A DNA stretch of 64,000 nt, from the NCBI RefSeq assembly GCF_002954265.1, contig NZ_PPSL01000001.1, positions 930,001 to 994,000 on the forward strand, read 5' to 3'. The notes below the pieces were generated by a model. The model did no database searches and had not been told where the DNA came from. It was given only the letters and a program-made list of their open reading frames with translations. This document shows, piece after piece, positions 31,565 to 60,697 of this stretch; position 1 is the first letter of the stretch, and every line of letters starts with the position of its first letter. Position numbers and translations under genes: made by a program. This stretch comes from Flavipsychrobacter stenotrophus. Lineage in GTDB: Bacteria; Bacteroidota; Bacteroidia; Chitinophagales; Chitinophagaceae.

Positions 31565-33112
31565 TTAAAAGAACCCTAGTTTTTGTTTGCTGTAAGAGAT
31601 CAGCATATTCTTGGTCTGCCTGTAGTGGCCCAGCATCATCTTGTGTGTCTCACGACCAAAGCCTGACTTCTTATAACCACCAAATGGAGCATGTGCAGGG
31701 TATGCATGGTAACAGTTCACCCAAACACGACCCGCCTGTATAGCACGAGGAACCTGGTACAACTCATGTGCATCGCGTGTCCATACGCCCGAACCCAATC
31801 CGTACAATGAATCATTAGCAATTTCTATTGCCTCTTCCGTAGTTTTGAAGGTTGTGACACAAACCACCGGTCCGAATATCTCTTCCTGGAAGATGCGCAT
31901 CTTGTTATTGCCCTTAAATATAGTTGGCTGCACGTAGTAGCCGCCTTCTATATCGGTATCTTGTTTTACCGGCGCACCACCCACCAGCAGTTCAGCACCT
32001 TCCTGTAGTCCTATATCTATGTAAGAAAGAATCTTTTCATACTGATCGTTAGATGCCTGCGCACCGATCATTGTAGCAGCATCCAGCGGATTACCTGTTT
32101 TAATAGCCTTTACACGAGCTACTACACGCTCCATAAACTTATCGTAAATGCTTTCGTGAACGAGGATACGAGATGGGCATGTGCATATTTCACCCTGGTT
32201 GAGCGCAAACATCACCGCACCTTCAATAGCCTTATCAAAGAAATCATCATCAGCCTCTGCAACCGACGGGAAGAAAATGTTTGGCGATTTGCCACCCAAC
32301 TCCATTGTAACCGGTATCAGGTTCTCAGATGCATACTGCATGATGAGGCGGCCCGTAGTGGTCTCACCTGTAAATGACACCTTAGATATTCTTGAAGATG
32401 TAGCCAACGGCTTACCAGCTTCAGGACCAAATCCGGTAACAATATTCAGCACACCTGCAGGCAACAGATCACCTATCAGTTCCATCAGCACGATAATGCT
32501 GGTTGGCGTTTGTTCAGCGGGTTTCAATACTACTGTGCAACCTGCAGCCAATGCCGGTGCCATTTTCCACGTAGCCATCAGCAAAGGGAAGTTCCATGGT
32601 ATGATCTGTCCTACGACACCTATTGGCTCATGCAGGTTAATGCTCACTGTATGTTCATCGTGCTCAGAAATTGTGCCTTCTTCCGCCCTTATAACACCTG
32701 CAAAATAACGGAAGTGATCTACTACCAATGGCAGATCGGCAGCCTTGGTCTCGCGGATGGGCTTACCATTATCAATAGTCTCTACTGTAGCCAGATAGTC
32801 AAGATTATCTTCTATCACCTGTGCTATCTTAAGTAATATATTGCTTCTGTAAGTAGCCGCTGTTTTGCTCCATGTTTTGAAAGCTTCCAGTGCGGCATCT
32901 ACAGCCAGCTCCACATCTTCTTTCTTAGACCGTGCAGCCTGTGTGAATACTTCACCGGTCACAGGAGAAATATTATCGAAATACTCGCCACCTACCGGTG
33001 CGGCCCACTTTCCACCTATATAATTTTCATAACGGCTCTTTATTGCAGGCCAGTTGTTCTTTGACAAACTATCGGCAAGGATAGTACTCTTGGGTGCTGT
33101 TTGCGTTGACAT
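31565..33112 (-). CDS. NAD(P)-dependent aldehyde dehydrogenase
   Basis: A 515-residue aldehyde dehydrogenase of the AldA/ExaC type that oxidises aldehydes to acids. Motifs seen are [22 protein letters not shown], the cofactor segment [12 protein letters not shown], the catalytic glutamate in [12 protein letters not shown], and the catalytic Cys in [11 protein letters not shown]. The C-terminal [10 protein letters not shown] and [13 protein letters not shown] are also typical. It diverges from an AraC regulator gene (160 nt apart) that probably controls it, and a DUF779 gene follows downstream. The exact aldehyde is unknown. Confidence 0.93.
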
Positions 33113-33140
33113 ATAATTAAGTGTTTGATTTAGTATGAAC

Positions 33141-33168
33141 CAAAGCTATTTTTATATCTGCCGACAAA
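33141..33168 (-). promoter_or_regulatory. Candidate promoter of the aldehyde dehydrogenase gene
   Basis: On the minus strand TTTG (33165-33168) and TAGCTTTG (33141-33148) match the -33 and -7 consensus with a 16-nt spacer, a little shorter than usual. Confidence 0.45.
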
Positions 33169-33272
33169 TCGGGTAAAACGTATCAGCCCAATCATACTAT
33201 TGTATCAATTATTTGCTTTTTCTTGCTGCTAACTCTATAATGGTTAAATTAGTACTGTAGAAAAAAGTCCGT

Positions 33273-34181
33273 ATGAGTTTTATTCAACAAATTCAGCTTA
33301 CCCCGCAGAAAAACCTGCTCACCGATGTGGAGAACAGGAAGATCTACACGTTGGACAAATGCGAGCTGAATGTTTTTGAAACTTACCGCACATCCGAGTT
33401 GGTGCAACTGACCTTTCACGATCTGGTCATTACCAGTATGGTGCGCGGCAAAAAGGTGATGCACCTGCCTACCAATCCCTCTTTTGAATATGTACCCGGC
33501 GAGACGGTTTTGGCTCCCGCAGGCACTAAAATGGCCATCGATTTCCCCGAGGCCGAAGAGCAAAACCCTACGCAGTGCATAGCTTTAACGATAGACAGAG
33601 AATCGGTAAGCAAAACTGTAAACTACCTCAATCATAATTTTCCACGCGAAGGCACCAATGCATCTTGGGATATCAATTTCAGGTTCACTCACCTAAAGAA
33701 CAGCAGTGTACTGGCCGACGTGATCAATAAAATGGTCAACATCTGCAGCGAGCAAAATCTGACAAAAGATATCCTGGCCGATCTCACTATGAAGGAATTA
33801 GTAGTGCGTCTGGTGCAGCTACAGAACCTCTACGAGATACATGATCATATTCCACCCACCAGTAGTGCATTCGGGTTTCTGTCACAGTTCATCAAAGAGA
33901 ATCTGCACAACAGGATAGATGTGGATACCCTTAGCCGCAAGGTATATATGAGCCGCCCCAATTTCTTCCGCCACTTCAAGCGGGAGTACGGCATCTCCCC
34001 TACTCAGTACATCATCAGCGAGCGACTGAAAATGGCCAAGGTTCTCATAGCCGGCACCAAAATGAGCATACAGCAAATATGCATAGAAACAGGCTTTGAA
34101 GACACCAACAACTTTATCAAACTATTCAAAAAGAGCGAAGGAGTTACTCCTGGTATGTACAGGAATAAACTGGCGAGTTAG
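33273..34181 (+). CDS. AraC-family transcriptional regulator of the aldehyde dehydrogenase cluster
   Basis: A 302-residue regulator. The N-terminal half is the cupin-like AraC N-terminal domain (VMHLPTNPSFEYVPGETVLAPAGTKM). The C-terminal half has two helix-turn-helix motifs (DVDTLSRKVYMSRPNFFRHFKREY and SIQQICIETGFEDTNNFIKLFKK). It diverges from the aldehyde dehydrogenase gene, so it most likely regulates it; the arrangement ALDH, DUF779, AraC is a common bacterial cluster. A hairpin lies after the stop. Confidence 0.9.
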   Translation: MSFIQQIQLTPQKNLLTDVENRKIYTLDKCELNVFETYRTSELVQLTFHDLVITSMVRGKKVMHLPTNPSFEYVPGETVLAPAGTKMAIDFPEAEEQNPTQCIALTIDRESVSKTVNYLNHNFPREGTNASWDINFRFTHLKNSSVLADVINKMVNICSEQNLTKDILADLTMKELVVRLVQLQNLYEIHDHIPPTSSAFGFLSQFIKENLHNRIDVDTLSRKVYMSRPNFFRHFKREYGISPTQYIISERLKMAKVLIAGTKMSIQQICIETGFEDTNNFIKLFKKSEGVTPGMYRNKLAS

Positions 34182-34208
34182 TGCTTAGCTATAGAAATTC
34201 GCACGGAG

Positions 34209-34240
34209 CGCCGTTGTTGGTCTTATGACCAATAACGGCG
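34209..34240. terminator. Hairpin after the AraC gene
   Basis: A 14-bp stem with one G-T pair (34209-34222 and 34227-34240) and the loop TTAT. There is no clear T-tract on either side, so terminator activity is uncertain. Confidence 0.4.
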
Positions 34241-34338
34241 AAAATAACGACGAAAACATACAGCTACACAGCATCACCGCATCACTATGTAACCAAATCG
34301 ACTCTTTCAACTTACAACTTATGACTTACGACTAAAAA

Positions 34339-35220
34339 CTACATCAATATATGCTCCACATTCTTCTTAATGTTCTCTGCTATCTTTTCCAGTGGCAGGT
34401 CATTAAATTCAGTACCAAACGGGTCTTCTATTTCTTCAGCGATCATCTCCAGACTGGCTAGTACATAGAACACAATACCCACTATCGGAATGCTGAAGTA
34501 AGTTAATGTAAAGACCAAACCGAAAGGGAGCGTCATGATGTAAAGGAAGATGAACTTTTTAATGAACGTGCTGTACGAGTATGGTATTGGTGTATTCTTG
34601 ATACGCTCACAGGCACCACATACATCCAGAAACGACTGGAACTCGGCATTTAAAATAATGGTCTGATCGCCCGTTAACGTCCCTTCATTATACATAAGGT
34701 TGAGCTTTGACGCCATTACAGATGCTATTTGATTAGGTACATGCTTGGTATGGTCAAGATCCGGAATCTCAGGGTGTGGATCACTATCGAGTTCCAGTCG
34801 AGTGGTTTCAGCCCGCAGGTGTAGATACAAGGCATGAGCAAACATCGGGATGATCTTTTTAAAGAAAGCTCTGTCTTTCTCATTGCCACGTGGCAGCATG
34901 GCATTCATTTTCACAGCCAGGTTGCGACTGTTATTAACCAGTCCGCCCCACAACTTGCGACCTTCCCACCACCTGTCATAGGCTGTATTGGTACGAAACA
35001 CCATCAACAAACTGATAATTGCCCCCAACAACGTATGCAAAGTAAGAATACTCTTAAATGGAGGAACATCGTGCAAGTGAAGCGTGGTGATCATTATAAA
35101 GTAGACAATGGCCGTATACACGCATACAGCCATTATGTATGGCAGCAACCTGCTGAAAGTATCAGCCTTACGAAGCTCGAAAATATTGATCAGGTTACCC
35201 TTCTTGCCTATTGTTATCAT
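34339..35220 (-). CDS. Bestrophin-family ion channel (UPF0187)
   Basis: A 293-residue integral membrane protein of the bacterial bestrophin-like family, a pentameric ion channel related to human bestrophins. The motif FRTNTAYDRWWEGRKLWGGLVNNSR is the family signature. Four hydrophobic stretches are visible: YIMAVCVYTAIVYFIMI, TLLGAIISLLMVF, FIFLYIMTLPFGLVFTLTYF and IVGIVFYVLASLEMI. The C-terminal part ends in EEIEDPFGTEFNDLPLEKI, also typical. It is alone on this strand. Confidence 0.93.
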   Translation of the reverse strand: MITIGKKGNLINIFELRKADTFSRLLPYIMAVCVYTAIVYFIMITTLHLHDVPPFKSILTLHTLLGAIISLLMVFRTNTAYDRWWEGRKLWGGLVNNSRNLAVKMNAMLPRGNEKDRAFFKKIIPMFAHALYLHLRAETTRLELDSDPHPEIPDLDHTKHVPNQIASVMASKLNLMYNEGTLTGDQTIILNAEFQSFLDVCGACERIKNTPIPYSYSTFIKKFIFLYIMTLPFGLVFTLTYFSIPIVGIVFYVLASLEMIAEEIEDPFGTEFNDLPLEKIAENIKKNVEHILM

Positions 35221-35687
35221 GTGAGGTGTAAAATACTAAAAACAGGGAAATAGACAATGAATGTTACAGACAGTTCATGCAAAGCGTGCATGGTGGTAGC
35301 TGTTCTTTACCCTGTAATTTAAAAAATTTCAATTGCCACGACCTTTAGGTCAATACTATCTGACTTAGGCGCTAATTGCATGTCATGATGCCGAAGGCAT
35401 CAGACATTGGATTGCAATCGATTGTAGATGAATTACTTATTTTTAGGGTCGATTTTTTAGTCGATCAATTTAAGAACTTTCTCTCTCACTCAACCTATCT
35501 TTACGCAGATGTAGCTATCATTACAAATATAGTAAATTGGGAATAAAATTGTGTGCATAATGTACACAAGGGTATATTCATACTTAGGCGTAACTACTTT
35601 TCTCAAATGAATTGTGTCGTTTGTAGCAATTGAGTCTAAGGCTTATTCCTGATGTTCTCATATGCAAATTTGCCTTTAAACATAGTG
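35221..35687. other. Gene-free stretch at the edge of the accessory region
   Basis: 467 nt with no convincing frame. It contains a short hairpin TGATGCC / GGCATCA at 35386-35392 and 35396-35402 and the palindrome CAATCGATTG near 35418. This may be the left boundary of the island that follows, but no attachment-site repeat was found by eye. Confidence 0.4.
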
Positions 35688-36494
35688 TCAATTTGATAAT
35701 GTCAGCTTAATTATTGAACCTATGTTAATTGAGTATCTGTTGGCAAATGAACCTTGATTCACTGCAATTTCAACTCTTCCGTAGTCATCCTTTAAAATTA
35801 AATTCTCACCAAAAGCTACTTCTCCAAATGTATCACATACAATTACGGTTATATCTTTTTTATTTGGGAGACTTATTACAACGGTCTGTGCAGACTTGAT
35901 CCCCCAGTTATCCCAATCTTTGTGTAAAATATTTAAGTGTACCGACCCAAATTTATTTATATGAATCACCTTAGCTGTAATTACTTCAGCTATTCTGTCT
36001 GCCTCATCATATGGGGATTCTACTAAATGATTTTTTTTCAATTTTGCGCCAAAACTCTTCAAGTCAACCCCATTAGCAAGATGTGCTGCTGCTGGCGAAA
36101 AGATATCTCTCCCGTGAAAAATCGGAGACACAGGAAGATTCATATAATTTTCATTGGTTATTTCATATACAGAACTAATACCACCAAGAACCCGAGATGC
36201 TGGAATCAAGACTCCATTATCAGGACCTATTAAATAATCACCGCGATTAACTTTAATAATAATTGCCTTTCGGGAAGTACCTACCCCCGGATCACATATA
36301 CACACGTGATAACCTAGGGGAACATATCTAACTGTTTCTAGAGTCCTTGCAGCAGCTAGAATATCAAAAGATGGTAATCCATGCATTAAGTGGATAACCT
36401 TAATGTGAGGGGAGATTGAAGCTATCATTGCTTCCATGATTCCTACCCCTTGAGATTGGACTCCAAAATCGCTGGTCAAAGTTACGATCTTCAT
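35688..36494 (-). CDS. SAM hydrolase (S-adenosyl-L-methionine hydroxide adenosyltransferase)
   Basis: A 268-residue enzyme of the DUF62/fluorinase-like family, which splits SAM with water into adenosine and methionine. The catalytic triad known for the archaeal homologue (Asp68, Arg75, His127) is present at the same numbers: Asp68 and Arg75 in CDPGVGTSR, His127 in FHGRDIF. The N-terminal TSDFG motif and LIGPDNG are also conserved. It starts 4 nt after the creatininase stop, the last gene of a three-gene operon with the STAND protein. Its place there suggests it depletes or tunes SAM during a response; this is inference. Confidence 0.9.
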   Translation of the reverse strand: MKIVTLTSDFGVQSQGVGIMEAMIASISPHIKVIHLMHGLPSFDILAAARTLETVRYVPLGYHVCICDPGVGTSRKAIIIKVNRGDYLIGPDNGVLIPASRVLGGISSVYEITNENYMNLPVSPIFHGRDIFSPAAAHLANGVDLKSFGAKLKKNHLVESPYDEADRIAEVITAKVIHINKFGSVHLNILHKDWDNWGIKSAQTVVISLPNKKDITVIVCDTFGEVAFGENLILKDDYGRVEIAVNQGSFANRYSINIGSIIKLTLSN

Positions 36495-36498
36495 ATAA

Positions 36499-37239
36499 TT
36501 ATTTAGTTAGTTCGTTAAGTAATTTGGAATATCCATTGACTGCTTCAGTTATCAATTTATCGCCAATTACTGCGCTTGCCAACTTTTGATTCGCATTTAT
36601 AACTCCAGATTTTGTATATAATTCATTCACCAAATCCCGGCTAATCCAATAGCTAACCTTGGCAAACTCATTTGAGAGAAGCTCTTTATTTACCAAAGTA
36701 TCATCTATTGCTAGGAGAATTGAAGCATCTGTAGCATCGGCATGGCCGCCGTTCGAATCACCAAACTCTGTCTGCATTATTTCACGAAAAGAAGGAAAAT
36801 CCCAAAAATCTTTTACAAAATACCTCATGCCGGACAATTCATTACCGAGTTCAGAAAATGCGGCCAGAATGCAACCATAGTTATCCCCGTGTCCATTTAC
36901 AACTAAAAATCTACGAAAACCGCCAATGTATAGAGAATTTATATAGTCTTTGATAACTGTTATTAAAGTTGTAGGCTTTAACGATATTGTTCCAGGGAAA
37001 TTCAAATGAATTAAAGAATCTCCAACTGCGATGGTTGGTGAAACCAAAACATTATTATCAAAGCCAACTTTTAGAGCAAAATACTCTGCAAGCAATGCAT
37101 CAGTATATAGTGGACAGGACATACCGTGCTGTTCAATTGCTCCAATTGGAACAATTACCAAATCAGATTTTGTCAAATAGGTCTGAATTTGTACCCAGGT
37201 CTTATATTTCAACTCAATACTCTTCGAATTCGGAATCAT
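36499..37239 (-). CDS. Creatininase-family amidohydrolase
   Basis: A 246-residue metal-dependent hydrolase of the creatininase fold. The metal ligands are visible in PIGAIEQHG (Glu36, His38) and LYTDALLAE (Asp47), the NGHGDN motif (His117), and GGHADATDAS, which replaces the usual Glu-containing HAGxxE block with aspartate at 171. The family includes creatininase, MftE and other ring-opening or amide-cleaving enzymes, so its substrate is not predictable. It sits 51 nt after the STAND gene and 4 nt before the SAM hydrolase gene. Confidence 0.88.
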   Translation of the reverse strand: MIPNSKSIELKYKTWVQIQTYLTKSDLVIVPIGAIEQHGMSCPLYTDALLAEYFALKVGFDNNVLVSPTIAVGDSLIHLNFPGTISLKPTTLITVIKDYINSLYIGGFRRFLVVNGHGDNYGCILAAFSELGNELSGMRYFVKDFWDFPSFREIMQTEFGDSNGGHADATDASILLAIDDTLVNKELLSNEFAKVSYWISRDLVNELYTKSGVINANQKLASAVIGDKLITEAVNGYSKLLNELTK

Positions 37240-37290
37240 AGGTTAATATATTTTGTGTTAAAATAATACGAAAATTCATTGAAATAACTA

Positions 37291-39921
37291 TTATGTTTTT
37301 TTTAAAATTATTAGGAGTTTTCTTACATCGCTGACTTCGGGAACATTTAGGCGTTCAAATATTTTGAGTGCCTCTTGAAAAGAGTCCATAGATTGCTGAA
37401 CATCTCCAAGCTCCAAAAGTGATTTTCCTTCTACATCATAGGAACGGCCAATTTGATAGTCATCACCAATTTTTGCTGCCACATCTCTAGCATCCCGACT
37501 GTAGTTAATTGCTAGGCGGTAATTTTCAAATTCAATTTCTAAATACCCAAGGTTATTTAAAACAACAGCTTCGCCGTGCCTATCATGATATGTTCGAAAT
37601 AGATGTAACGATTTAAAGAAACCAGAAGATGCATTTTCAATATTTCCCAAACGTAAGTGCGAAAAAGCCATGTTATTCGTTGTGCTTCCAATGCCAACCC
37701 AATCTTCTAATTTTTCTCTAATTTTAAGAGCTTTTTCAAAAAATGAAAGAGCTATTTCGTACTTCTCCATCCGCCAATAAACAGCTCCAGTGTTATTCAA
37801 AGTGAATGCTTGACCGTACTCGTTTTCACAAAACTCATGTACCGCTATGGCTTTTGTCAATATATTGAGAGCATCTTCGTATAGCCCTAACCGTTCTAAT
37901 GTAAACCCATGACCATTTAACGTGTATGCGAGTCCGTCGTCATTGGAAATACCTCCCCAAATTACCTCTGCTTTTTCAAACAACTCTATTGCTTTATTAA
38001 AATTACCGGACTCATGATACGCAAATGCAAGTTCTGTAAGAGAGGAGGCCTTCATTTCTAAATCATTACTCGTTTCAGAGAAGTTAAACGCATTTGAATG
38101 GATTTCAATCACACGAAAACTGGAAATACTCCTTTTTAGATAGCCTGCCATCATTTGTGAAAGCTGCCAATATTTGATGTCCCACTTTCTCTTAAATGCA
38201 AATTGAAGTATCGCGAATAAATTGTCAATTTCATCCTCAAACCATGCTAATGCCAACTCTATACTAGGGTGATCTTCTCTATTATTTATATCGTCTCCAA
38301 GCTCAATTTTCACTCTAAATTGATTAGGATATAAAATATTATTAGCATTACGGAGAAGGTGCAAATAATAATCTATTAATTGTAAAATGGCTTTGTTTTC
38401 TCCATCGTTGTCACCTGTAGCTCTATATTTATTACGTGAAAACTCCCTTAATAAATCATGTAGTCGATATCGTTCAAGACTGGTTTCTACTACCAAAGAC
38501 TCTTCAACTAAATACTCTACTAATTCTTGCGCCGTTTCGATTGGCAAACATAACATAGCTGCACAGGCTCCAACTGTAAAATTCAAACCCGGATACACCC
38601 CCATCATTTGAAACATTTTTTGTTCGTTTTGCGAAAGTGAACCATAAGACAATTCAAAAACTTCATTAACGAGGGCAAAATGAGAACTTTGCAGACCAGC
38701 CAACTTAGCCGATCTTTTGTGCAATTCAATCTCGTTATTTATTATGTCTCTACTATGCCTGCGCCAACGTCCTGCGACAATATTCAACGCTAAAGGAAGA
38801 TAGCCGCATTGCCTTACAATATCGGATAATAGTCCAAATGCTTCTTTATGGGGAACATGTCCCCGAACTTTTTGAATAAGTTCAATTGAATCTTCTTCAT
38901 TTAGAACATCCAATTGTAAAGGGTATGAACCTACCAAGCCAGTCAATCTATTTCTACTTGTGACCAACACAAGCTTCCCTGGTGTTCCTGGCAAAATTGG
39001 TTCGACTTGCTTTTGTGTTTTTACGTTGTCAATCAAAATAATTGCTCGTTTGCCTGCTAACTCTGATTTCCATATAGCAGACTTCTCGCTAACATTTTTC
39101 GGGATACTGTGAATTGGCACACCAAGTGCAAACAACAATGAATCAAGAATTTGTTCGGAGGTTAAAGGCTCCTGCCCCTCTGTGTAACCGTAGCAATCAA
39201 TATAAAGTTGAGCATCTGGAAATTCGGGCGTAAGTGTATGTGCAAGATGAACAGCCAAGGCTGTTTTCCCTACTCCAGGCATACCATCAATAGAAGAGAT
39301 TACAACGGCAGGAGTTGGACTGTGAAAATTATCTTCGATAGCCTTTCTTAATTCAAGAATTTGTTCTTTTCTTCCAATGAAGTTTGGAATGGCCCTTGGT
39401 AGAGTATTCGGTCGTTTATTATTACTTTCTCTTTTTATAGAAAGTCCTGTAATTTCTGTTTTAAGGTCATCTAGTTTTCGTATGATTTCATCCTCAATAA
39501 AAAATTGCATCCCGATTTCTGGATGCTTAGCTAATAAATTTCTTAATTTTGTTTCTCCCCACCATTCCGCTTTAATATCTGAGAAATCAATTGAGTCAAA
39601 CCAATGTTTTTCTGCTGGAGTATGATCATGAGGTATACACAATATCCATTTTGATAATCTCTTTTGCAAACGAGCATTTCTAAATGATTGTTTTATCTGA
39701 TTTTTTTGAGATGAAGTCAAACTTGGTATAAAATATTTCATCTGGAATATTTCCAAATTACCAAGTTCATTAACAATAAAGCAGTCAATCCCATCATCAC
39801 CTCCTTTACCATTTATGCTAATAGCGTTAATTTCTCTAGCTAACAGTTGGCAGATAAGCAGTTCAAAGTTTTCTTGGGCTGATAGCTTAGGGCCTCGAAT
39901 TTTCGAAAAATCGCAATTCAC
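37291..39921 (-). CDS. STAND ATPase: PD-(D/E)XK nuclease-like, NB-ARC and TPR domains
   Basis: An 876-residue protein with three parts. Residues 1-130 look like an Mrr-type PD-(D/E)XK nuclease: GIDCF with Asp46, then EIFQMKYF with Glu58, Gln60 and Lys62. Residues about 180-500 form an NB-ARC ATPase: Walker A GMPGVGKT (213-220), Walker B AIILIDN, LVTSRNRLTGL, CGYLPLAL and an LHD motif at 487-489. The rest (about 580-870) is a row of tetratricopeptide repeats, the likely sensor. The NB-ARC resembles actinobacterial AfsR/SARP-type proteins more than typical Bacteroidota ones, suggesting transfer. The start is a GTG. It heads the operon with creatininase and SAM hydrolase. Such STAND nucleases commonly act in antiphage defence; function here is inferred. 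Confidence 0.85.
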   Translation of the reverse strand: MNCDFSKIRGPKLSAQENFELLICQLLAREINAISINGKGGDDGIDCFIVNELGNLEIFQMKYFIPSLTSSQKNQIKQSFRNARLQKRLSKWILCIPHDHTPAEKHWFDSIDFSDIKAEWWGETKLRNLLAKHPEIGMQFFIEDEIIRKLDDLKTEITGLSIKRESNNKRPNTLPRAIPNFIGRKEQILELRKAIEDNFHSPTPAVVISSIDGMPGVGKTALAVHLAHTLTPEFPDAQLYIDCYGYTEGQEPLTSEQILDSLLFALGVPIHSIPKNVSEKSAIWKSELAGKRAIILIDNVKTQKQVEPILPGTPGKLVLVTSRNRLTGLVGSYPLQLDVLNEEDSIELIQKVRGHVPHKEAFGLLSDIVRQCGYLPLALNIVAGRWRRHSRDIINNEIELHKRSAKLAGLQSSHFALVNEVFELSYGSLSQNEQKMFQMMGVYPGLNFTVGACAAMLCLPIETAQELVEYLVEESLVVETSLERYRLHDLLREFSRNKYRATGDNDGENKAILQLIDYYLHLLRNANNILYPNQFRVKIELGDDINNREDHPSIELALAWFEDEIDNLFAILQFAFKRKWDIKYWQLSQMMAGYLKRSISSFRVIEIHSNAFNFSETSNDLEMKASSLTELAFAYHESGNFNKAIELFEKAEVIWGGISNDDGLAYTLNGHGFTLERLGLYEDALNILTKAIAVHEFCENEYGQAFTLNNTGAVYWRMEKYEIALSFFEKALKIREKLEDWVGIGSTTNNMAFSHLRLGNIENASSGFFKSLHLFRTYHDRHGEAVVLNNLGYLEIEFENYRLAINYSRDARDVAAKIGDDYQIGRSYDVEGKSLLELGDVQQSMDSFQEALKIFERLNVPEVSDVRKLLIILKKT

Positions 39922-40003
39922 AAATAAATATTTGAAAATTTGAGCATAATAAAATGTAAATTATATGTAAAAATGTGGCTACTTTCTGTCACTATCATAT
40001 AGG

Positions 40004-40558
40004 TTAAGGGTCAATTTTTTTAGCCAGACCTTCGACGATCTCTGCTCCAGGTAAATACATAAGCGCATTACTTGGAATTGATAATTTAGATTTCTTCAAA
40101 CCACCTCCAATAATGATGCGTTCTGAGGTCATAACTAGAGGGTCAATAAAAACCTGCCAATCCTTAGGCAACCCAATGGGGGTAATACTACCATACTCCA
40201 TTTGTGTTTTTGATATAACAAGATCAAGTGATGCAACTGAAACTTGTCTAGCATTTAGTTTTTTACGTACTACGCCGGACATATCATATCTATATCCAAC
40301 AGGAACTAGGCATACTACTATGCTTGAGATGCCACCACGCTTACCCTCAACAATTAAACAATTAGCGCCATGCCTAGGGTCAACTCCGTATTTAGCGCAT
40401 AGTTCAGCGCCGCCAGAAAACTCAGGATCAATCTCAGCAACTAAAAAGTCTGATGCTTTTTGCGGTCCTGTCCAAGATTTAATGGCTTCTGTTAACGAAG
40501 CCGGTACTAAATCTGGTCTTTCAAGTACTGGCGAAAAATTTAACGATGTTCCTTGCAT
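40004..40558 (-). CDS. YbaK/EbsC-family aminoacyl-tRNA deacylase-like protein
   Basis: A 184-residue protein of the YbaK/ProX editing family, which removes wrongly attached amino acids from tRNA(Pro) or tRNA(Cys). The motifs KASDFLVAEIDPEFSGG, NCLIVEGKRGG and the LPKDWQVFIDPLVM ending fit the fold. The chosen ATG (MQGTSLNF) trims a poorly supported N-terminal extension of 17 residues. It lies 82 nt upstream of the STAND gene on the same strand. It may be a stand-alone gene or part of the same conflict cluster. Confidence 0.82.
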   Translation of the reverse strand: MQGTSLNFSPVLERPDLVPASLTEAIKSWTGPQKASDFLVAEIDPEFSGGAELCAKYGVDPRHGANCLIVEGKRGGISSIVVCLVPVGYRYDMSGVVRKKLNARQVSVASLDLVISKTQMEYGSITPIGLPKDWQVFIDPLVMTSERIIIGGGLKKSKLSIPSNALMYLPGAEIVEGLAKKIDP

Positions 40559-40669
40559 AAATAAATAATTAACAAATGGTGATGAAATTAGATAGTACAA
40601 TAGAAACACATTTTTGCAAACCTTTTTATGGCAAATAGAATTAAATATTATTAGCTACGAATCCGTTGG

Positions 40670-40963
40670 TTATTCTCCATGTGTTCGTAACGTTGAGTGC
40701 TGCGAAGTAGTACCTAGTTTTAATTTGCTAAGTAATTGGGACAAACGTTCAAGCGCAGGAATCAGCTCTTCATCTCTTAAATCAATTTTATCATTGCTAA
40801 CAAAATTTACGCAACTTTGAATATATATTCCTATCAGGGCTGGATTTTCTTTTGCATAATTATTTCCAAATTTTTCATCTAAGCTTTTTATGCATCTGGC
40901 TAAATAAAAATCGATTGTGTCTGAAACTATCTCTGTCTCAAGTCTCTTTTCCATAATAATCAT
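40670..40963 (-). CDS. Hypothetical protein
   Basis: A 97-residue acidic protein without signal peptide or membrane segment and no recognised family. It is predicted helical (ETEIVSDTIDFYLARCIKSLDEKF, LIPALERLSQLLSKLKL). An internal Met three codons in (MEKRLETEI) is an equally good start. It lies 111 nt upstream of the YbaK-type gene on the same strand, so it may be the first gene of the cluster. Confidence 0.55.
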   Translation of the reverse strand: MIIMEKRLETEIVSDTIDFYLARCIKSLDEKFGNNYAKENPALIGIYIQSCVNFVSNDKIDLRDEELIPALERLSQLLSKLKLGTTSQHSTLRTHGE

Positions 40964-41269
40964 TAATTATTTTTATTATCAAATATAAGTATTTTCATTA
41001 GAGAATAAAAAAAGAAATGCGTGAGTTTAGAATCTAATCGCTTATTTGGGATGTGGGCAAAATGCGGTTTATATTGAACAAACCCGTCGGATGGAACACT
41101 CATATTTGCTGCGAGAAAAACTTGACAAGAAAATGCTACTGTACTTTAATTTGTACGATTTGCAAGATTGCATGTCGCCACGGCGACATATGCCAATCCC
41201 CACTATGTGGCGATTTACATCTTATGGGGGAGGTATCCCCTTACCCCTCAGTTACATCGATTCATAATG
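40964..41269. other. Gene-free stretch with several short inverted repeats
   Basis: 306 nt between the defence-like cluster and the mobile element. It holds a hyphenated palindrome ATGTCGCC-AC-GGCGACAT at 41172-41189, a related arm ATGTGGCGA at about 41205, and a GGGGG/CCCC stem at 41226-41240. Short frames present here are Cys-rich and not supported. The palindrome could be a recombinase or regulator binding site. Confidence 0.35.
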
Positions 41270-42436
41270 CTAAATCCGCTTAACAGACACGCCACTAAAT
41301 GGCTGCGATACAGTGCCATCTATCATCAATTTCAAATACATCGCATAGCGCGGAAGGTTAACCAGATCATCCTGGGTGAAGGTAGGATAGAACTCTTTGG
41401 CGAGGTATTCAGCATCATTAGCCCCAATCCGAAATGAGATCATCGTTCCTACATTCCCGAATATCGCAGCCTGCACCCGTACATCCATCTGTTCAAGATA
41501 TTGGTGCGCTAAAAACAATGACAATCCATACTTTCTCGCCTCAGCCAAGATAGTGGCGAATGATAGCGTCACGAAGGAATGGCATTCATCAATATACATG
41601 TAAAACGGCCTGCGCTGTACTTCCGGCTGAGATGCCCTGTAGAGTGCTGCAAGCTGCATGGCGTTGATTAACATGGCACCAATGAGGGATGAAGCGTCTT
41701 CTCCAATCTGCCCCTTAGAGACATTAACTATGAGTATCTTTCCTTTGTCGAGCACCTGCGATAATCGGAAACCATTGGTTTTCTGACCGACTATCTTTCT
41801 AAGTGCATTACTGGTAACGAATAAGCCGGTCTTATTGAGAATCGGTGCAATTGCCTCTGTCCTCAATCTAAGCGTGTATTTATCAAACTCGTTATGCCAG
41901 AAGTTTAGGATGTGGTCTTCGTTAACATATCTCAATGCGTTTTTACGAAAATCGCCATCTGTCAGCAATGGCTGGATATCTAGAAGCGTAGCATCAGGGA
42001 CACAAAGGAGTGTCAGAAGCGTATATTTTAGTATGTATTCGAGTCGTGGCCCCCAGCTGTCTCCCCATATTTTGCGGAATGTGGAAATTAGCCCAGATGC
42101 TACGAGGTCCTGGTATTTTGGATGAACAGCTTTAAGTGGATTGAATGCGATTGGGCGTTCGAGGTCGGTTGCATTGAGATAGATAAGGTCATGCTTTCTG
42201 CTCTCCGGAATGTACCGCACCAGGTCGGCTGCGATGTCTCCATGCGGATCAATGATGCACAGACCGTTACCCCGGTCAATGTCGCTTATGGCCATGTTCT
42301 TAAGCAATGTGCTTTTGCCGGTGCCGCTCTTTCCTATGATGTACAAATGCTGTAGCCTGTCTTTGTCCCGTATGCCGAACAGCTGGTTTGTGTTCCGATA
42401 GTTTGTGGTCCCGATTGGGGTGACGTCGCTGTCCAT
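41270..42436 (-). CDS. HerA/TraD-like DNA-transfer ATPase
   Basis: A 388-residue ATPase of the HerA/VirB4/TraD group. Walker A is GKSGTGKST (residues 35-43), followed by CIIDPHGD with Asp63, then Walker B YMYIDECHSF and the segment FLAHQYLEQMD. These motifs and LFGIRDKDRLQHLYIIG match conjugative coupling-type ATPases seen on mobile elements. Unlike canonical coupling proteins it has no N-terminal membrane segments, so it may act in mobilisation of the element without a complete secretion system. No relaxase or VirB genes are in the window. A shared promoter-like motif lies 63 nt (36 nt edge to edge) before its start. Confidence 0.82.
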   Translation of the reverse strand: MDSDVTPIGTTNYRNTNQLFGIRDKDRLQHLYIIGKSGTGKSTLLKNMAISDIDRGNGLCIIDPHGDIAADLVRYIPESRKHDLIYLNATDLERPIAFNPLKAVHPKYQDLVASGLISTFRKIWGDSWGPRLEYILKYTLLTLLCVPDATLLDIQPLLTDGDFRKNALRYVNEDHILNFWHNEFDKYTLRLRTEAIAPILNKTGLFVTSNALRKIVGQKTNGFRLSQVLDKGKILIVNVSKGQIGEDASSLIGAMLINAMQLAALYRASQPEVQRRPFYMYIDECHSFVTLSFATILAEARKYGLSLFLAHQYLEQMDVRVQAAIFGNVGTMISFRIGANDAEYLAKEFYPTFTQDDLVNLPRYAMYLKLMIDGTVSQPFSGVSVKRI

Positions 42437-42471
42437 ATTGATAGCATATAGCTTTAAAATGTGTCAGATAA

Positions 42472-42499
42472 GACAGGGGAAATATAGACAAGTGTATAC
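42472..42499 (-). promoter_or_regulatory. Element-specific 28-bp motif, copy upstream of the HerA/TraD-like gene
   Basis: Read on the minus strand: GTATACACTTGTCTATATTT then CCCCTGTC. The 5' end lies 63 nt before the start codon at 42436, the same distance as two other copies. The internal TATATTT resembles a Bacteroidota -7 box. Confidence 0.55.
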
Positions 42500-42671
42500 T
42501 CATCGTTTTCTAAATCGGCATTTACATTCTGGGTATATGAGATATTGTATTCCAATGAGAACAAGGGAGATGTTCTCCAAATGGTTTGTGGTTTAATTTC
42601 ACTCAACTGTGTTTGCTGGGCTGTTGTCGGATCAATAAAGTCGCTATTGTAACTATGTAGGTGCCGTTTTT

Positions 42672-44276
42672 TTAATCTGTATTCTTTAGAATATTTGATA
42701 ATCGCTTTATTTCTTCAGCATATTGTTGGCACTCAACAATATCATTCTCGCACCCACTTTTATTATCTTGTTCGTAATTCTGTCCCTTAGAGGGCACAGT
42801 AAGGGACAAACGAGGTAAAAAAAGTTCTTTAGCCTTAAAAATACTGGCTACTTCGATGGTTCGAAACCTCTTGCCATCAAATGTTATTCCTTTAGGGAAT
42901 TCGAACCACTGTAATTTTATCCGTTTCTCTAAGGATGCTTGCGACCAAACATAACTTGGGTTTTCTAAGTACTCTTCTGCAAATGCAAACGCTTCCTCTA
43001 AGTTTGTATCCCTTTCAGGAAGCCTAAGCAATTCGGAGGTTGTTGACGACAATTTCACCTCAATGTCTTCTAGTTGTCGGCGGAGGACTGTGTCATTGAT
43101 TATTCCTTTTACATTTTTGTCAATGAGCGTTGTCTGACGTTCCTCCAATTCTGAAATGTATGTTTTCAATTTAGCCGCAATTTTGTACTGCTCTTTCAAT
43201 GCACCATCCAATGCGTTAGAGAGACTTTTTTTAAATGTAGCCAGTTGGTTTCTGTCGAATACATATTGATCAAGAAAGGACAGATATTCACTTTCCATCC
43301 ATTCTTTTTGGTAGTTGGAATTTTCAACGCCGATAAAGCGGTAATAGGCGTATTTGCTATGTCTGCCCTGTGACCAGGCACCTGTTATTTTTTTGCCTGT
43401 AGGATGGAAGACAAAACGCCTGAGAGGAAAATCAGGATGTTCATTCCTGTAAATACCATTACTACGGTGCGAACGACGCTTTAGTATACGTTGCACTTGA
43501 TCAAACAACTGCTGCGAAATAAGTGCCTCAAAAGTACCTTTATGTCGTTCACCAAATTTTACAATCCATCCCGCATATACTGGGTTATTGATCAGCCTGT
43601 AGTAATGTGATTTAGTGAATTTTTTTCCAGTTTTGGTAGTAAGACCTTCTTTGAACAATAACTTACGAACGGCGTCAACTGCTATTTCGTCTCTACCGAT
43701 TTCTTCAAATATCTTCCTGATCAATGGCGCTTTTTCGTTCGGTAGAATCGTTGACTTCCCTGCCACCTTTTCGTTGGAATAACCATATGGGGCACCCCAA
43801 ACATACCTGCCTTCACGCATGGCGTCACGACTCCCGTTTATGCTGCGCTCGGTACGGACATCGTTATCAAACTGCGCAACATTGGCGATGATATTCTCCA
43901 TAAACCTCCCTGCGGGATTATCCTCAAAATATTCAGTAGTAGACTTAATTTCTATCTTATACTGTTTTAGAAGAAGCCTAATTTGTCTGTAATCATCAAT
44001 ATTTCGTGCAATGCGGTCAATTTTATAGGCGATGATAGCCGTAACGCCATTTTTCTTGTTTGCGCAGTAGCTAAGTAGTTTCTTCAATTCGGTCCTGTCT
44101 GCATTTTTTGCGCTCTCTCCTTGTTCGATAAATATTTCTGAAATCTGAAATCCATTTTTGATTGCGTAATCCTTGCAAATTCTTTCTTGGGTTGCCAGGC
44201 TCCCGCCTTCGTCAACCTGTTCCTTAGTTGATACCCGGCAGTATATCACAGCCTTTTTTAGGGATGGGTTTTCCAT
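42672..44276 (-). CDS. Large serine recombinase (integrase)
   Basis: A 534-residue recombinase that cuts and joins DNA through a catalytic serine. Residues about 8-150 are the resolvase catalytic domain with Ser16 in YCRVSTKEQ and the conserved arginines in KIDRIARN. Residues about 165-275 are the recombinase domain. Residues about 284-313 are where the zinc ribbon normally lies, but the stretch PLRRFVFHPTGKKITGAWSQG has lost every Cys ligand. A coiled segment follows (around 350-410). It is the probable integrase of the element. It overlaps the small upstream gene by 53 nt. Confidence 0.9.
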   Translation of the reverse strand: MENPSLKKAVIYCRVSTKEQVDEGGSLATQERICKDYAIKNGFQISEIFIEQGESAKNADRTELKKLLSYCANKKNGVTAIIAYKIDRIARNIDDYRQIRLLLKQYKIEIKSTTEYFEDNPAGRFMENIIANVAQFDNDVRTERSINGSRDAMREGRYVWGAPYGYSNEKVAGKSTILPNEKAPLIRKIFEEIGRDEIAVDAVRKLLFKEGLTTKTGKKFTKSHYYRLINNPVYAGWIVKFGERHKGTFEALISQQLFDQVQRILKRRSHRSNGIYRNEHPDFPLRRFVFHPTGKKITGAWSQGRHSKYAYYRFIGVENSNYQKEWMESEYLSFLDQYVFDRNQLATFKKSLSNALDGALKEQYKIAAKLKTYISELEERQTTLIDKNVKGIINDTVLRRQLEDIEVKLSSTTSELLRLPERDTNLEEAFAFAEEYLENPSYVWSQASLEKRIKLQWFEFPKGITFDGKRFRTIEVASIFKAKELFLPRLSLTVPSKGQNYEQDNKSGCENDIVECQQYAEEIKRLSNILKNTD

Positions 44277-44487
44277 TACATTTTAGTTCCATGAAAATGT
44301 CTACGAGAAGCTTTGCCAGATAATCTATCTGCATGTCTTCGGTGACCAATGGAGAATTACTTATAAAATCCAAAGAAGGGGAGCGTACATTGGCTTTGTT
44401 GCTACACAAAGGCTTCTGTAAACGCTCCCCTTCTTTGGGTTCGACTTTTGCACCAATGCCAGATAATCCTTTGTGTAGCTCACTCAT
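44224..44487 (-). CDS. Small protein upstream of and overlapping the recombinase gene
   Basis: An 87-residue protein starting at MSELHKGLSGIGAKVEPK. Its 3' end overlaps the recombinase gene by 53 nt in another frame, and the start sits exactly 63 nt after a shared element motif, which supports it. The C-terminal part (MQIDYLAKLLVDIFMELKCNG) is a conserved-looking helix; the middle is encoded by a long perfect inverted repeat. No family assigned. It may be a translational or excision helper of the recombinase. Confidence 0.6.
   Translation of the reverse strand: MSELHKGLSGIGAKVEPKEGERLQKPLCSNKANVRSPSLDFISNSPLVTEDMQIDYLAKLLVDIFMELKCNGKPIPKKGCDILPGIN
44371..44437. repeat. Long inverted repeat inside the small coding gene
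   Basis: Perfect 16-bp arms CAAAGAAGGGGAGCGT (44371-44386) and ACGCTCCCCTTCTTTG (44422-44437), with an inner CTTTGT/ACAAAG pair. The whole hairpin is 67 nt and falls within the reading frame of the small gene. Confidence 0.75.
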
Positions 44488-44522
44488 ACTACCATCTTTC
44501 CATTTTCCTGTTAAGCGGGTAA

Positions 44523-44550
44523 GACAGGAAAAATATAGACAAGTAAATAC
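44523..44550 (-). promoter_or_regulatory. Element-specific 28-bp motif, copy upstream of the recombinase unit
   Basis: Minus strand: GTATTTACTTGTCTATATTT then TTCCTGTC. The 5' end lies 63 nt before the start at 44487. Confidence 0.55.
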
Positions 44551-44652
44551 ACAAGTCGATGTTTTCGAGTTGAGATTTCCTTTAAGAGCATTTGTGTTTA
44601 CTATTGGTGTATGCCTATCTCTTGCCGGCAATTTGTTATAGCAGATTCCAAC

Positions 44653-44680
44653 ATATCCATAAGTGTATATTTTACCTGCC
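44653..44680 (+). promoter_or_regulatory. Element-specific 28-bp motif, copy upstream of the XRE gene
   Basis: Plus strand: ATATCCATAAGTGTATATTT then TACCTGCC. The 5' end lies 63 nt before the start at 44716. It diverges from the copy at 44523-44550. Confidence 0.5.
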
Positions 44681-44715
44681 TTATGGTCGCGTTCCGTAAT
44701 TGCTAACGTTTATAC

Positions 44716-44994
44716 ATGACTTCACGGATACCATCTTTGGGAGAACAGCTTCGCAAGCACCGTGCTCTTATGGGCTATTCCATCCGTGAAGCAGCAAAGG
44801 AAGCAAAGATTGCGCCAATACGGCTGTCACAATGGGAGCGTAATTTGAGAAAGCCAAGCATTGAGAATATATCAATTCTTGCAGTTGTGTATCGTGTCCT
44901 AATAGACGAGTTGTGCGTAGAACTTCGGCACAAGGCGGTGCAGAAACACCAAACCCATTTTGGTATACATACTGGCAGCGACAAGCCTCCCTAG
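44716..44994 (+). CDS. XRE-family helix-turn-helix regulator
   Basis: A 92-residue Cro/CI-type DNA-binding protein. The helix-turn-helix covers residues about 8-63: LGEQLRKHRALMGYSIREAAKEAKIAPIRLSQWERNLRKPSIENI. The last 25 residues are polar and unassigned. It diverges from the recombinase/small-gene unit. It is a candidate regulator of the 28-bp motif found before several element genes; this is inference from position. Confidence 0.88.
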   Translation: MTSRIPSLGEQLRKHRALMGYSIREAAKEAKIAPIRLSQWERNLRKPSIENISILAVVYRVLIDELCVELRHKAVQKHQTHFGIHTGSDKPP

Positions 44995-45156
44995 CTAATA
45001 CCTGTCCGAATTTTTACGGTTTTTTCTTGTACCTTCTTCCTGTATTCCCTCTTTACTGTATCGTCGCTCTTACGCTCGACTTATTTATTTAATAATAAAT
45101 AACGATAAGCGAACGATAGTAAGGGATGTGGAAAAGATAGCAAGTTATTAACAGAA

Positions 45157-45180
45157 ATATCCATTTATATATACATTCTA
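45157..45180 (+). promoter_or_regulatory. Partial match to the element-specific motif
   Basis: ATATCCATTTATATATACAT followed by TCTA, abutting the start codon at 45180. It matches the front of the motif but lacks the CCTG end, and its position differs from the other copies. Confidence 0.25.
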
Positions 45181-45410
45181 TGGCTACCACAAAAGAAACA
45201 AAGCTTGCCCGTGAGATTGCGGATGCGCTCGGTGACAATGATTCCCTCGCTGTGCATATAGGTTTCTGTGAAAAGTTTTCGGAAGCGTTCCTTAGAAAGA
45301 CACTGCAAAAGGTGCTCTCCATTCCTGAGGACCAGATACGAAAGACCCGTGGCGCATTATTCACTTACCTCGTCAACCAGAACTATGGCAAAGGCTCTTC
45401 TCGGGATTAG
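45180..45410 (+). CDS. Hypothetical element protein
   Basis: A 76-residue soluble protein of unknown family. It is predicted helical, with motifs ETKLAREIADALGDNDSLAVHIGFCEKFSEAFLRK. Its stop overlaps the next gene by 26 nt, showing translational coupling to the RuvC-like gene. Confidence 0.65.
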   Translation: MATTKETKLAREIADALGDNDSLAVHIGFCEKFSEAFLRKTLQKVLSIPEDQIRKTRGALFTYLVNQNYGKGSSRD

Positions 45411-45864
45411 CCCCGGAACCCGTATAGTTGGGTTGGCAGTGATTGAAGAAGGAGAACTGGTCAAATGGAAGGTAAAGACTTTCAAAGCGGCATGGTCAAG
45501 CAAGAAACGCAAAATGATACTTGATGCCATAGATAATATCTGCGGGAACTACAACATACATAAGATCGCCATCAAGAAGATAGATGCGCAGAGGAGTTCG
45601 CCGCAACTGGATAGGCTGATAGTGGCTATATCCAAGCTATCGGAAAGGAATGCCATTCCGATAGCAGAATACTCGTTATCCGACCTCGATTATGATAAAA
45701 GAAGCAATGCCAGGCTAACCAAAGGGCGGCTCTCCGAAGAGGTTGCAGCCAGACACCCTAAACTAAGGTACAAGCTGCTACGGGAACGTGGCAACCGCAC
45801 GGAATACTACACTAAGATGTTTGAGGCTATCGCAATGGCGGAGCGTTGCAGGGATGACGAATAG
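45385..45864 (+). CDS. RuvC-like RNase-H-fold protein of the element
   Basis: A 159-residue protein resembling RuvC-type Holliday-junction resolvases. It opens with LLGISPGTRIVGLAVIEEG, where active RuvC proteins have GIDPGTR; the first catalytic aspartate is therefore replaced by Ser (Ser9). Later segments IHKIAIKKIDAQRSSPQL and YYTKMFEAIAMAE recall the remaining active-site strands. If the change is real the enzyme may be inactive or use another residue. It is co-transcribed with the small upstream gene. Confidence 0.75.
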   Translation: MAKALLGISPGTRIVGLAVIEEGELVKWKVKTFKAAWSSKKRKMILDAIDNICGNYNIHKIAIKKIDAQRSSPQLDRLIVAISKLSERNAIPIAEYSLSDLDYDKRSNARLTKGRLSEEVAARHPKLRYKLLRERGNRTEYYTKMFEAIAMAERCRDDE

Positions 45865-45910
45865 AGAGCGGGAGAGCCTGGCATCGTCCAAGCTTTTTCT
45901 TGCCCTTATA

Positions 45911-45934
45911 GTATCCATTTATGGATACAGCCTG
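45911..45934 (+). promoter_or_regulatory. Element-specific motif, copy upstream of the methylase gene
   Basis: GTATCCATTTATGGATACAG followed by CCTG. The 5' end lies 64 nt before the start at 45975. The first half contains the palindrome TATCCAT/ATGGATA. Confidence 0.4.
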
Positions 45935-45974
45935 AAGAATATGCCTTTGCTATGCTTTTCATAAAACAAGCTCC

Positions 45975-46754
45975 ATGAAAAGTAAAAAAGAAACATTTGC
46001 GCAGATGATGGCGACCTCAACGTATCATTACGATCTCCGCTCCGTCTTTGACGACCTCCTGACAATGTCGCTCTGCGCCCTGAGCTACAATCCGCTGACC
46101 GGCAAATTTCACGATGAAGACCTATACATGGCTACCGTCGGCAAATATCAAACTAGCGACTTCAGATTCCAGTTCCCCAAGCTGTTCGCCCAGCTCGTGG
46201 CCGAGATGGAAGAGCGTGTCGATGACAGCCAAGGCAACGACATATTAGGAGCGTATTTTGAGCAGCACTTGTGCCGCAAGAACTCAGGCCAGTTCTTCAC
46301 GCCGTTCCACATCTGCACATTTATGGCCGAAACCCTCCGTGACGGAAGTAAGGACAGCAGCCGAAGGCAGCGGGTGCTTGACCCCACCTGCGGCAGCGGG
46401 AGGATGCTGCTGGCAGGCTCCAAGAGCTTGGGAAAAGATCATGAGTACTATGGCATAGACGTAGACCATACCTGCGTGAAAATGGCTGCGATTAACCTGT
46501 TCCTCAACGGGGTGTTCCATTCCGAGGTGATGTGGGCGGATGCGCTGCTTCCCGACGATTTCCATATGTCGTATCGGATATCTTTCCTGCCCTTCGGGAT
46601 ATTCAGGATACAGCACAAGGAGCAATCCAAGCTATGGCATATGTACAGGAACTCTTTCCCTGAAAAGAAGGTGGTCACTAAGCAGCCAATAGTATGGCCA
46701 TCCCAAACGAGTGAAAGACATAGTGGTGACGGGTCTCAATTAAAACTGTTTTGA
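45975..46754 (+). CDS. N-6 DNA methylase-like protein lacking the catalytic NPPY motif
   Basis: A 259-residue protein of the HsdM-type N6-adenine methylase family. The SAM-binding motif X is GQFFTPFHI (105-113), motif I is DPTCGSGRML (136-145) and the acidic loop is YGIDVD (159-164). Where the catalytic (N/D)PP(Y/F) motif IV should lie the sequence reads MSYRISFLPFGIF, so methylation activity is doubtful. There is no target-recognition or HsdS/HsdR gene. It may bind SAM or DNA as a regulator or antirestriction protein. A terminator follows. Confidence 0.8.
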   Translation: MKSKKETFAQMMATSTYHYDLRSVFDDLLTMSLCALSYNPLTGKFHDEDLYMATVGKYQTSDFRFQFPKLFAQLVAEMEERVDDSQGNDILGAYFEQHLCRKNSGQFFTPFHICTFMAETLRDGSKDSSRRQRVLDPTCGSGRMLLAGSKSLGKDHEYYGIDVDHTCVKMAAINLFLNGVFHSEVMWADALLPDDFHMSYRISFLPFGIFRIQHKEQSKLWHMYRNSFPEKKVVTKQPIVWPSQTSERHSGDGSQLKLF

Positions 46755-60673: not shown

Positions 60674-60697
60674 ATGTCGGGCACCCATAAAAAATAT

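What the first reader, a model, noticed from the sequence alone, without database searches (positions are those of the whole stretch)
35688..39921. STAND nuclease-ATPase operon with creatininase and SAM hydrolase: candidate new conflict system
A protein with Mrr-like PD-(D/E)XK residues (Asp46, Glu58, Gln60, Lys62), an NB-ARC ATPase and TPRs is followed within 51 and 4 nt by a creatininase-family hydrolase and a SAM hydrolase with an intact Asp68-Arg75-His127 triad. The pairing of a sensor-switch-nuclease with two small-molecule hydrolases is not a layout I can name. SAM breakdown and an amide- or ring-opening step could make or remove a signal that gates the nuclease, or starve an invader's methyltransferases. 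The NB-ARC looks actinobacterial. This is the strongest candidate for an undescribed system in the window.
Basis: partly seen in the sequence, partly recalled or inferred. Interest (0 to 1): 0.8.

Follow-up and report, generated by a model that had tools for sequence, protein, structure and literature searches.

The report
Mobile-element immune-type nuclease gene block
A block of five low-GC genes sits at the end of a mobile DNA element in this bacterium; its core is a nuclease-switch-repeat protein that looks like a bacterial immune sensor, and the small enzymes beside it, one of them most like those of tiny archaea, were not found next to it anywhere else searched.

Summary
On the minus strand, a nuclease + NB-ARC + TPR protein (37291-39921) is followed, after 51 and 4 nt, by a creatininase-family hydrolase and a SAM hydrolase with Asp68, Arg75 and His127 intact. 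The unit is larger than reported: five co-directional genes (35688-40963, adding a YbaK-like protein and a 97-aa ORF) share GC3 0.245-0.300, against a host mean of 0.440. They lie at the left end of a 54.3-kb integrative element: 16-bp direct repeat, tyrosine integrase, relaxase, coupling protein, and an empty site in a sister species. The N-terminal domain is the nuclease module of Avs2 and Lamassu LmuA; the NB-ARC-TPR core is AfsR-like, so the protein is not Avs2. The 'new three-gene system' is not supported: within limited searches the set was found only here. The SAM hydrolase's 12 fetched relatives are all DPANN or CPR, 6 of them on one stretch with enolase; in 37 other phylum genomes printed with both families, creatininase and SAM hydrolase genes are never shown as neighbours. 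Best reading: a mobile, NLR-like, probably DNA-cleaving immune protein with co-carried metabolic hydrolases whose link to immunity is unproven. New variant of a known kind.

The parts
37291..39921 (-). STAND protein, 876 aa: Avs2/LmuA-type PD-(D/E)XK nuclease domain (about 1-155), NB-ARC switch (P-loop 213, Walker B 293, TSR 319, LPLAL 375, LHD 486), TPRs (about 615-860)
   Evidence: motif roles recalled
36499..37239 (-). creatininase-family metal hydrolase, 246 aa; candidate ligands E36, H38, D47, H117, D119, D171
   Evidence: ligand roles recalled from the Pseudomonas creatininase structure
35688..36494 (-). SAM hydrolase (DUF62/SAM_HAT), 268 aa, D68/R75/H127 intact, DPANN/CPR-type subfamily
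40004..40609 (-). YbaK-like protein (ATG at 40558 is an alternative, perhaps likelier, start); conserved YbaK Lys replaced by Asn, as in its Streptomyces and Nonomuraea relatives (about 38% identity)
   Evidence: role of the Lys recalled
40670..40963 (-). 97-aa ORF of unknown function, same low GC3
35387..35402 (.). left copy of the 16-bp direct repeat (GATGCCGAAGGCATCA) at the end of the integrative element; right copy at 89701-89716 on the window's scale, outside the window
42672..44276 (-). large serine recombinase inside the element
41270..42436 (-). TraD/HerA-like P-loop ATPase inside the element

Best explanation
The core is a single-protein, NLR-like immune sensor-effector carried as cargo by an integrative mobilizable element. 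Inferred working: the C-terminal TPRs recognise an invader-derived or stress cue, the NB-ARC exchanges nucleotide and the protein oligomerises, which brings the N-terminal Avs2/LmuA-type nuclease domains together to cut DNA and stop the invader or kill the cell. The creatininase-family hydrolase, the SAM hydrolase and the YbaK-like protein travel and are probably transcribed with it, but are separately recruited metabolic proteins; whether they serve immunity (for instance by lowering or editing a SAM-derived metabolite) or are passenger functions is open. Shown: gene content, motifs, shared composition, mobile element, absence of the set elsewhere in what was searched. Inferred: sensing, oligomerisation, DNA cleavage, co-transcription, any joint role.
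For: The N-terminal 152 residues match an Avs2 profile (3.3e-14) and residues 15-134 LmuA (6.9e-9). Of nine loci fetched with the same domain, seven were scanned: two encode Avs2 (1424 and 2412 bits), one an Avs2-like protein (228 bits), one LmuA (337 bits), one has weak hits only and two have none. Avs1-Avs4 nucleases are reported to kill by cleaving phage and host genomes (PMC12931631, passage). NB-ARC and TPR core with switch motifs, best solved relative AfsR over 130-870. Five-gene block with GC3 0.245-0.300 against 29 host ORFs with mean 0.440, sd 0.060, minimum 0.335. Exact 54.3-kb insertion: empty site in sister species G498, 16-bp repeat, integrase, relaxase, coupling protein. A second low-GC3 pair with defence-profile hits (DUF4365-dynamin) is cargo of the same element.
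Against: No immune activity has been tested. The only structure prediction, of the nuclease domain from a single sequence, failed (mean pLDDT 43.6), so the fold rests on sequence and motif; Pfam Mrr_cat is sub-threshold (E 0.051, 14.1 of 21 bits). The nearest relatives of the core are regulators (AfsR, HaaT), so a regulatory role is possible. The nearest genes with PADLOC hits (mad8-like ATPase, mad2-like methyltransferase) look like element backbone, so no certain defence gene adjoins the block.
Confidence: 0.5

Rival explanations
1. A true multi-gene conflict system: the SAM hydrolase, creatininase-family hydrolase and YbaK-like protein make, edit or remove a small-molecule signal (SAM-, aminoacyl- or amide-based) that gates the STAND nuclease, or deplete SAM in the infected cell as a second effector arm.
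For: 51- and 4-nt gaps and co-direction; one shared and unusual GC3 across all five genes although the nearest relatives found come from different lineages, which suggests a history together; catalytic residues kept.
Against: No second copy of the set in the searches made; in 6 of 12 DPANN/CPR loci the SAM hydrolase shares its stretch with enolase; no PADLOC profile matches either hydrolase at 0.01.
Confidence: 0.2
2. A resistance or detoxification cassette: hydrolases of a nucleoside-, aminoacyl- or amide-type compound with an AfsR/HaaT-like NB-ARC-TPR protein as regulator that also carries a nuclease-like DNA-binding domain.
For: Best core relatives are AfsR/HaaT regulators; three hydrolase-type folds in one block.
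Against: The N-terminal domain keeps the D-x-G-x-D...Q-x-K residues and is shared with immune effectors; no transporter or biosynthetic gene among the five.
Confidence: 0.12
3. A chance assembly: an immune STAND gene and unrelated metabolic genes accreted as cargo, with no joint role.
For: Different nearest relatives found (SAM hydrolase DPANN/CPR; YbaK-like actinobacterial; creatininase at most 43%, over 125 residues, to anything found); set seen once.
Against: Uniform GC3 and tight spacing of the five genes.
Confidence: 0.18

Closest known systems
Avs2 (AVAST type 2) and Avs family
   Same: N-terminal nuclease module of about 155 residues; nuclease-switch-sensor order
   Different: 876 aa against profile lengths of 1375-1576; the ATPase is a clear NB-ARC of AfsR type and the C-terminus TPR; the four matching Avs2 profiles reach no further than residue 152
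Lamassu LmuA nuclease
   Same: same N-terminal nuclease module
   Different: no SMC-like partner among the genes scanned around the block
AfsR / HaaT / SARP-type NB-ARC-TPR proteins
   Same: NB-ARC plus TPR core aligned over 130-870 and 172-764
   Different: no SARP DNA-binding domain found by Pfam; nuclease domain instead; scores far below the NCBIfam cut-offs (370.6 of 1125 for HaaT, 337.1 of 1430 for AfsR)
DUF62 (R)-SAM hydrolases
   Same: fold family and D/R/H triad
   Different: groups with DPANN/CPR proteins; below the curated cut-offs of the named (R)-SAM hydrolase models (144.4 of 470 and 137.6 of 350)
Creatininase family (creatininase, MftE, IolN, ArfB)
   Same: Pfam family and metal-site residues
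   Different: below the cut-offs of all four NCBIfam equivalogs it matches; Asp where Pseudomonas creatininase has Glu at two acidic positions

Membership tests
Avs2 | N-terminal Avs2-type nuclease domain | tested here: met
   PDLC02164 3.3e-14 over residues 1-152; motif alignment
Avs2 | Avs2-type STAND core and C-terminal sensor over the whole protein | tested here: not met
   four Avs2 profiles match, all within residues 1-152; NB-ARC/AfsR core instead
Lamassu | LmuA with SMC-like LmuB | tested here: not met
   no SMC-like gene among the ORFs Pfam-scanned between 34339 and 51132
STAND NTPase (NB-ARC clade) | P-loop, Walker B, TSR-like, GLPL-like and MHD-like motifs | tested here: met
   NB-ARC 4.4e-12, over its cut-off; motif positions 213, 293, 319, 375, 486 (motif roles recalled)
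Active PD-(D/E)XK nuclease | D...D/E-x-K or Q-x-K residues | tested here: met
   D42, G44, Q60, K62 invariant in 8 and in 10
Active PD-(D/E)XK nuclease | fold and cleavage | tested here: inconclusive
   single-sequence model pLDDT 43.6; cleavage not testable here
SAM hydrolase (DUF62) | both SAM_HAT domains and D/R/H triad | tested here: met
Creatininase family | metal-binding E/H/D/H residues | tested here: met
   alignment; residue roles recalled
Conserved three-gene conflict system | same genes together in unrelated genomes | tested here: not met
   actinobacterial and cyanobacterial chromosomes not reached with the STAND or creatininase
Anti-phage defence system | protection against phage or plasmid | not testable with these tools
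   needs bench work

The most novel reading that the evidence does not exclude
The five genes are one mobile immune unit in which an NLR-like nuclease is coupled to enzymes that cleave or edit SAM- and amide-type metabolites, assembled in part from a gene of DPANN/CPR type: a metabolite-gated STAND nuclease not described before.
Probability: 0.12. Interest if true: 0.78.

Novelty: new variant of a known kind. Interest (0 to 1): 0.42.

Why it matters
It shows an Avs2/LmuA-type nuclease joined to an AfsR-like NB-ARC-TPR core; in the 40 printed of 187 plasmid records matched by the whole protein the alignment never reaches into the first 147 residues, the nuclease domain. It sits on a mobile element whose empty site is mapped to the base. 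If the hydrolases do belong to it, SAM hydrolases, whose physiological role is debated (PMC12120602, passages seen), would gain a role in immunity. The DPANN/CPR affinity of the SAM hydrolase is a case of likely gene flow between tiny archaea or CPR and a larger bacterium.

Tried and rejected
Rejected: that the protein is Avs2 (only the first 152 residues match); that the SAM hydrolase is the host's housekeeping copy (two other SAM_HAT genes; tblastn finds 23% identity to one and nothing to the other, though one search counts three matches in the own genome); that the three genes form a recurrent set (see membership test).

Led nowhere: viral-contig scans with the SAM hydrolase, STAND, creatininase, SAM hydrolase alignment, nuclease domain and YbaK-like protein fetched no relative; phage records gave only 27-34% matches for the two hydrolases (7 records each) and none for the STAND; plasmids gave 9 records with a SAM hydrolase at 25-32%, of which I looked at 3 without finding the set, and 411 with a creatininase match, whose neighbourhoods I did not read; the 97-aa ORF has one weak match type (44% over 45 residues, 2 Vibrio plasmids); Rfam none in 33000-46000; promoter and terminator patterns near chance (26 found against mean 23.9, sd 4.8; 7 against 4.0, sd 2.0); nuclease-domain structure prediction too poor to search with. 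The relatives' GC3 (0.283-0.573 in 13 loci) does not point to a donor. Literature: searches for creatininase with SAM hydroxide adenosyltransferase, with NB-ARC and defense, and with STAND NTPase held no paper; some searches were seen as listings only, and as listings from each of which one paper was opened for passages; one search likewise a listing. Kaur et al. 2020 and 2021 were searched by term only and do not hold 'creatininase' and 'creatinin' respectively.

Limits: only one scan of all species genomes was available, with exact 8-residue patterns from the SAM hydrolase; actinobacterial and cyanobacterial chromosomes could not be searched with the STAND or creatininase, so a relative set there is not excluded. 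In some searches at most 4 and 2 first-look candidates per genome were scored. The adjacency count covers 38 of the 73 genomes with a creatininase match, those whose SAM hydrolase match was printed; in 29 of the 38 the two lie on different contigs, so adjacency across contig ends is not excluded. The DPANN/CPR loci hold 3.9-20.8 kb each. From the tree L002 (no tblastn match) and L044 (132 aa) were dropped and L045 was not entered; it warns of long branches, L042 and three plasmid rows among them.
Full report
Observation. The three genes are at the stated places on the minus strand with gaps of 51 and 4 nt. The first product has an N-terminal nuclease-like domain, an NB-ARC domain (208-387) and TPRs. 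The second is a creatininase-family protein (1.6e-52) and the third has both SAM_HAT domains. The SAM hydrolase residues D68, R75 and H127 are as reported; of the nuclease residues D46, Q60 and K62 are right and the glutamate is E57. The NB-ARC motifs looked for are present (roles of the motifs recalled).

Extent. Upstream on the same strand lie a YbaK-like gene (82 nt before the STAND start) and a 97-aa ORF (60 nt further, or 111 if the YbaK-like gene starts at the ATG at 40558). All five genes have GC3 0.245-0.300. The 29 host ORFs of at least 90 aa in the same stretch have mean 0.440, sd 0.060, minimum 0.335; the other 34 ORFs of the element have mean 0.477, the lowest three being 0.275, 0.303 and 0.316. 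So the block 35688-40963 is a compositional unit unlike the host and most of the element.

Mobile element. In a sister species (G498: bestrophin 100%, 99.7%, 95% DNA identity across the flank) the bestrophin gene lies next to an acyl-CoA thioesterase-like gene (gene name by my reading). In the window's genome the same two flanks are at window 35402 and at 89701 on the window's scale (outside the window), and the two flank alignments overlap by 16 bp in the empty site: a direct repeat GATGCCGAAGGCATCA at 35387-35402 and 89701-89716. The right end carries a tyrosine integrase, an HTH protein of excisionase type (my reading), a MobA/VirD2-type relaxase and a TraG-type coupling protein. The operon is the element's left-most cargo: the SAM hydrolase gene ends 285 nt from the repeat. 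Four further genus genomes whose flank I fetched (L069-L072, 15-17 kb upstream of the bestrophin gene) hold none of the block's genes there.

The STAND protein. Residues 1-152 match an Avs2 profile (3.3e-14) and 15-134 LmuA (6.9e-9). A tblastn of 1-172 against 72,556 plasmid records matched 30; I fetched 9 of the 30 and scanned the 7 with an annotated gene at the match. Two encode Avs2 (1424 and 2412 bits), one an Avs2-like protein (228 bits), one LmuA (337 bits), one has weak hits and two none. D42, G44, Q60 and K62 are invariant in 8 aligned domains and in 10. The NB-ARC-TPR core aligns with AfsR over 130-870 (4.4e-71) and, in plasmids, with 187 records at 1e-20, 156 of them Streptomyces; in all 40 printed the match begins at residue 148 or later, without the nuclease domain. 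No match at 1e-30 in the other 194 genomes of the family and only two TPR-region matches at 1e-25 in the other 394 of the class, with the caveat that few candidates per genome were scored. The protein is a chimera of two known kinds of module and, by the test above, not a member of Avs2.

The SAM hydrolase. One scan of 84,980 species genomes returned 12 relatives, all in DPANN archaea or CPR bacteria by their record titles (grouping recalled), ten of them covering most of the protein at 48-60% identity. The best printed match in the other 295 sampled genomes of the host phylum is 38%. A tree of 44 rows puts it in one set with the 10 DPANN/CPR rows (support 100/99); its place inside the set is open and several other branches are long. 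On the DNA held for the 12, no relative of the creatininase, STAND, YbaK-like, TraD-like or recombinase protein is found at 1e-3, and 0 of the 12 genomes has a creatininase match. Enolase lies on 6 of the 12 stretches, directly upstream in 4. I read the ORFs of two of these loci. A further search found the subfamily, at 1e-40, in 3 of 148 genomes of the phylum of one of them, that one included; the two new ones show no such neighbours and no enolase on the stretches held. Literature: DUF62 enzymes hydrolyse SAM, one of them preferring the (R,S) epimer, and their role is debated (PMC12120602, passages).

The creatininase-family protein. Closest solved relative 3no4 (9.2e-33), with the E/H/D/H positions kept; D119 stands where Pseudomonas creatininase has Glu and 3no4 Gly, and D171 where both have Glu (roles recalled). 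Matches at 1e-20 in 7 of the other 295 phylum genomes are 31-34% identical. In 192 genomes of one CPR phylum 7 match, best 43% over 125 residues; in the four of those seven regions that I fetched (one of only 3.8 kb) the other block genes are not found. Of 38 genomes printed with both a SAM hydrolase and a creatininase match, 9 have them on one contig; the window's genome has them 826 bases apart (low coordinate to low coordinate) and the next closest is 222,870.

The YbaK-like protein. About 38% to Streptomyces clavuligerus and Nonomuraea proteins; the lysine that YbaK uses (role recalled) is Asn here and in both relatives, so it looks like a subfamily trait rather than decay. Within 8 kb of those two no STAND, creatininase or SAM hydrolase relative is found. 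In the host phylum only 6 of the other 147 sampled genomes match, at 21-28%.

Judgement. The immune nature of the STAND is likely by its parts and its place on a mobile element; the three-gene conflict system is possible but rests on one locus. Shared GC3 and spacing argue that the five genes have travelled together; different nearest relatives, and the enolase neighbourhood of the SAM hydrolase in several DPANN, argue for recruited passenger functions.

Noticed in passing
own genome C14, window-scale 74893-76083 and 76304-77194 (L081:11893-13083 and 13304-14194, minus strand), outside the window: A second low-GC3 pair (0.275, 0.303) in the same element: the second ORF has DUF4365 plus a dynamin-type GTPase start and both have PADLOC LeoBC hits, one also Aga_REase; possibly one split dynamin-like defence gene or a two-gene system.
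   Followed up: partly
beside 35387-35402; L068:2949-3060: The sequence next to the insertion site gives about 23 partial matches (roughly 43-112 bases) around the host genome, so the integrase may target a dispersed repeat.
   Followed up: no
L034-L036, L039, L042, L043: DPANN SAM hydrolases of this subfamily lie on the same stretch as enolase in 6 of 12 loci, directly downstream of it in 4; a hint to their cellular role.
   Followed up: partly
41270-42436 (-) and 45975-46754 (+): TraD/HerA-like ATPase with a PADLOC mad8 hit (3.8e-20) and a short N6-methyltransferase with a mad2 hit (5.9e-14); may be element backbone rather than a MADS remnant.
   Followed up: no
51545-60688 (-): A 3047-aa ORF with a run of co-directional ORFs up to about 72.6 kb within the element, not examined.
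   Followed up: no
40004-40558 (-): YbaK-like subfamily shared with Streptomyces and Nonomuraea in which the YbaK lysine is Asn.
   Followed up: partly
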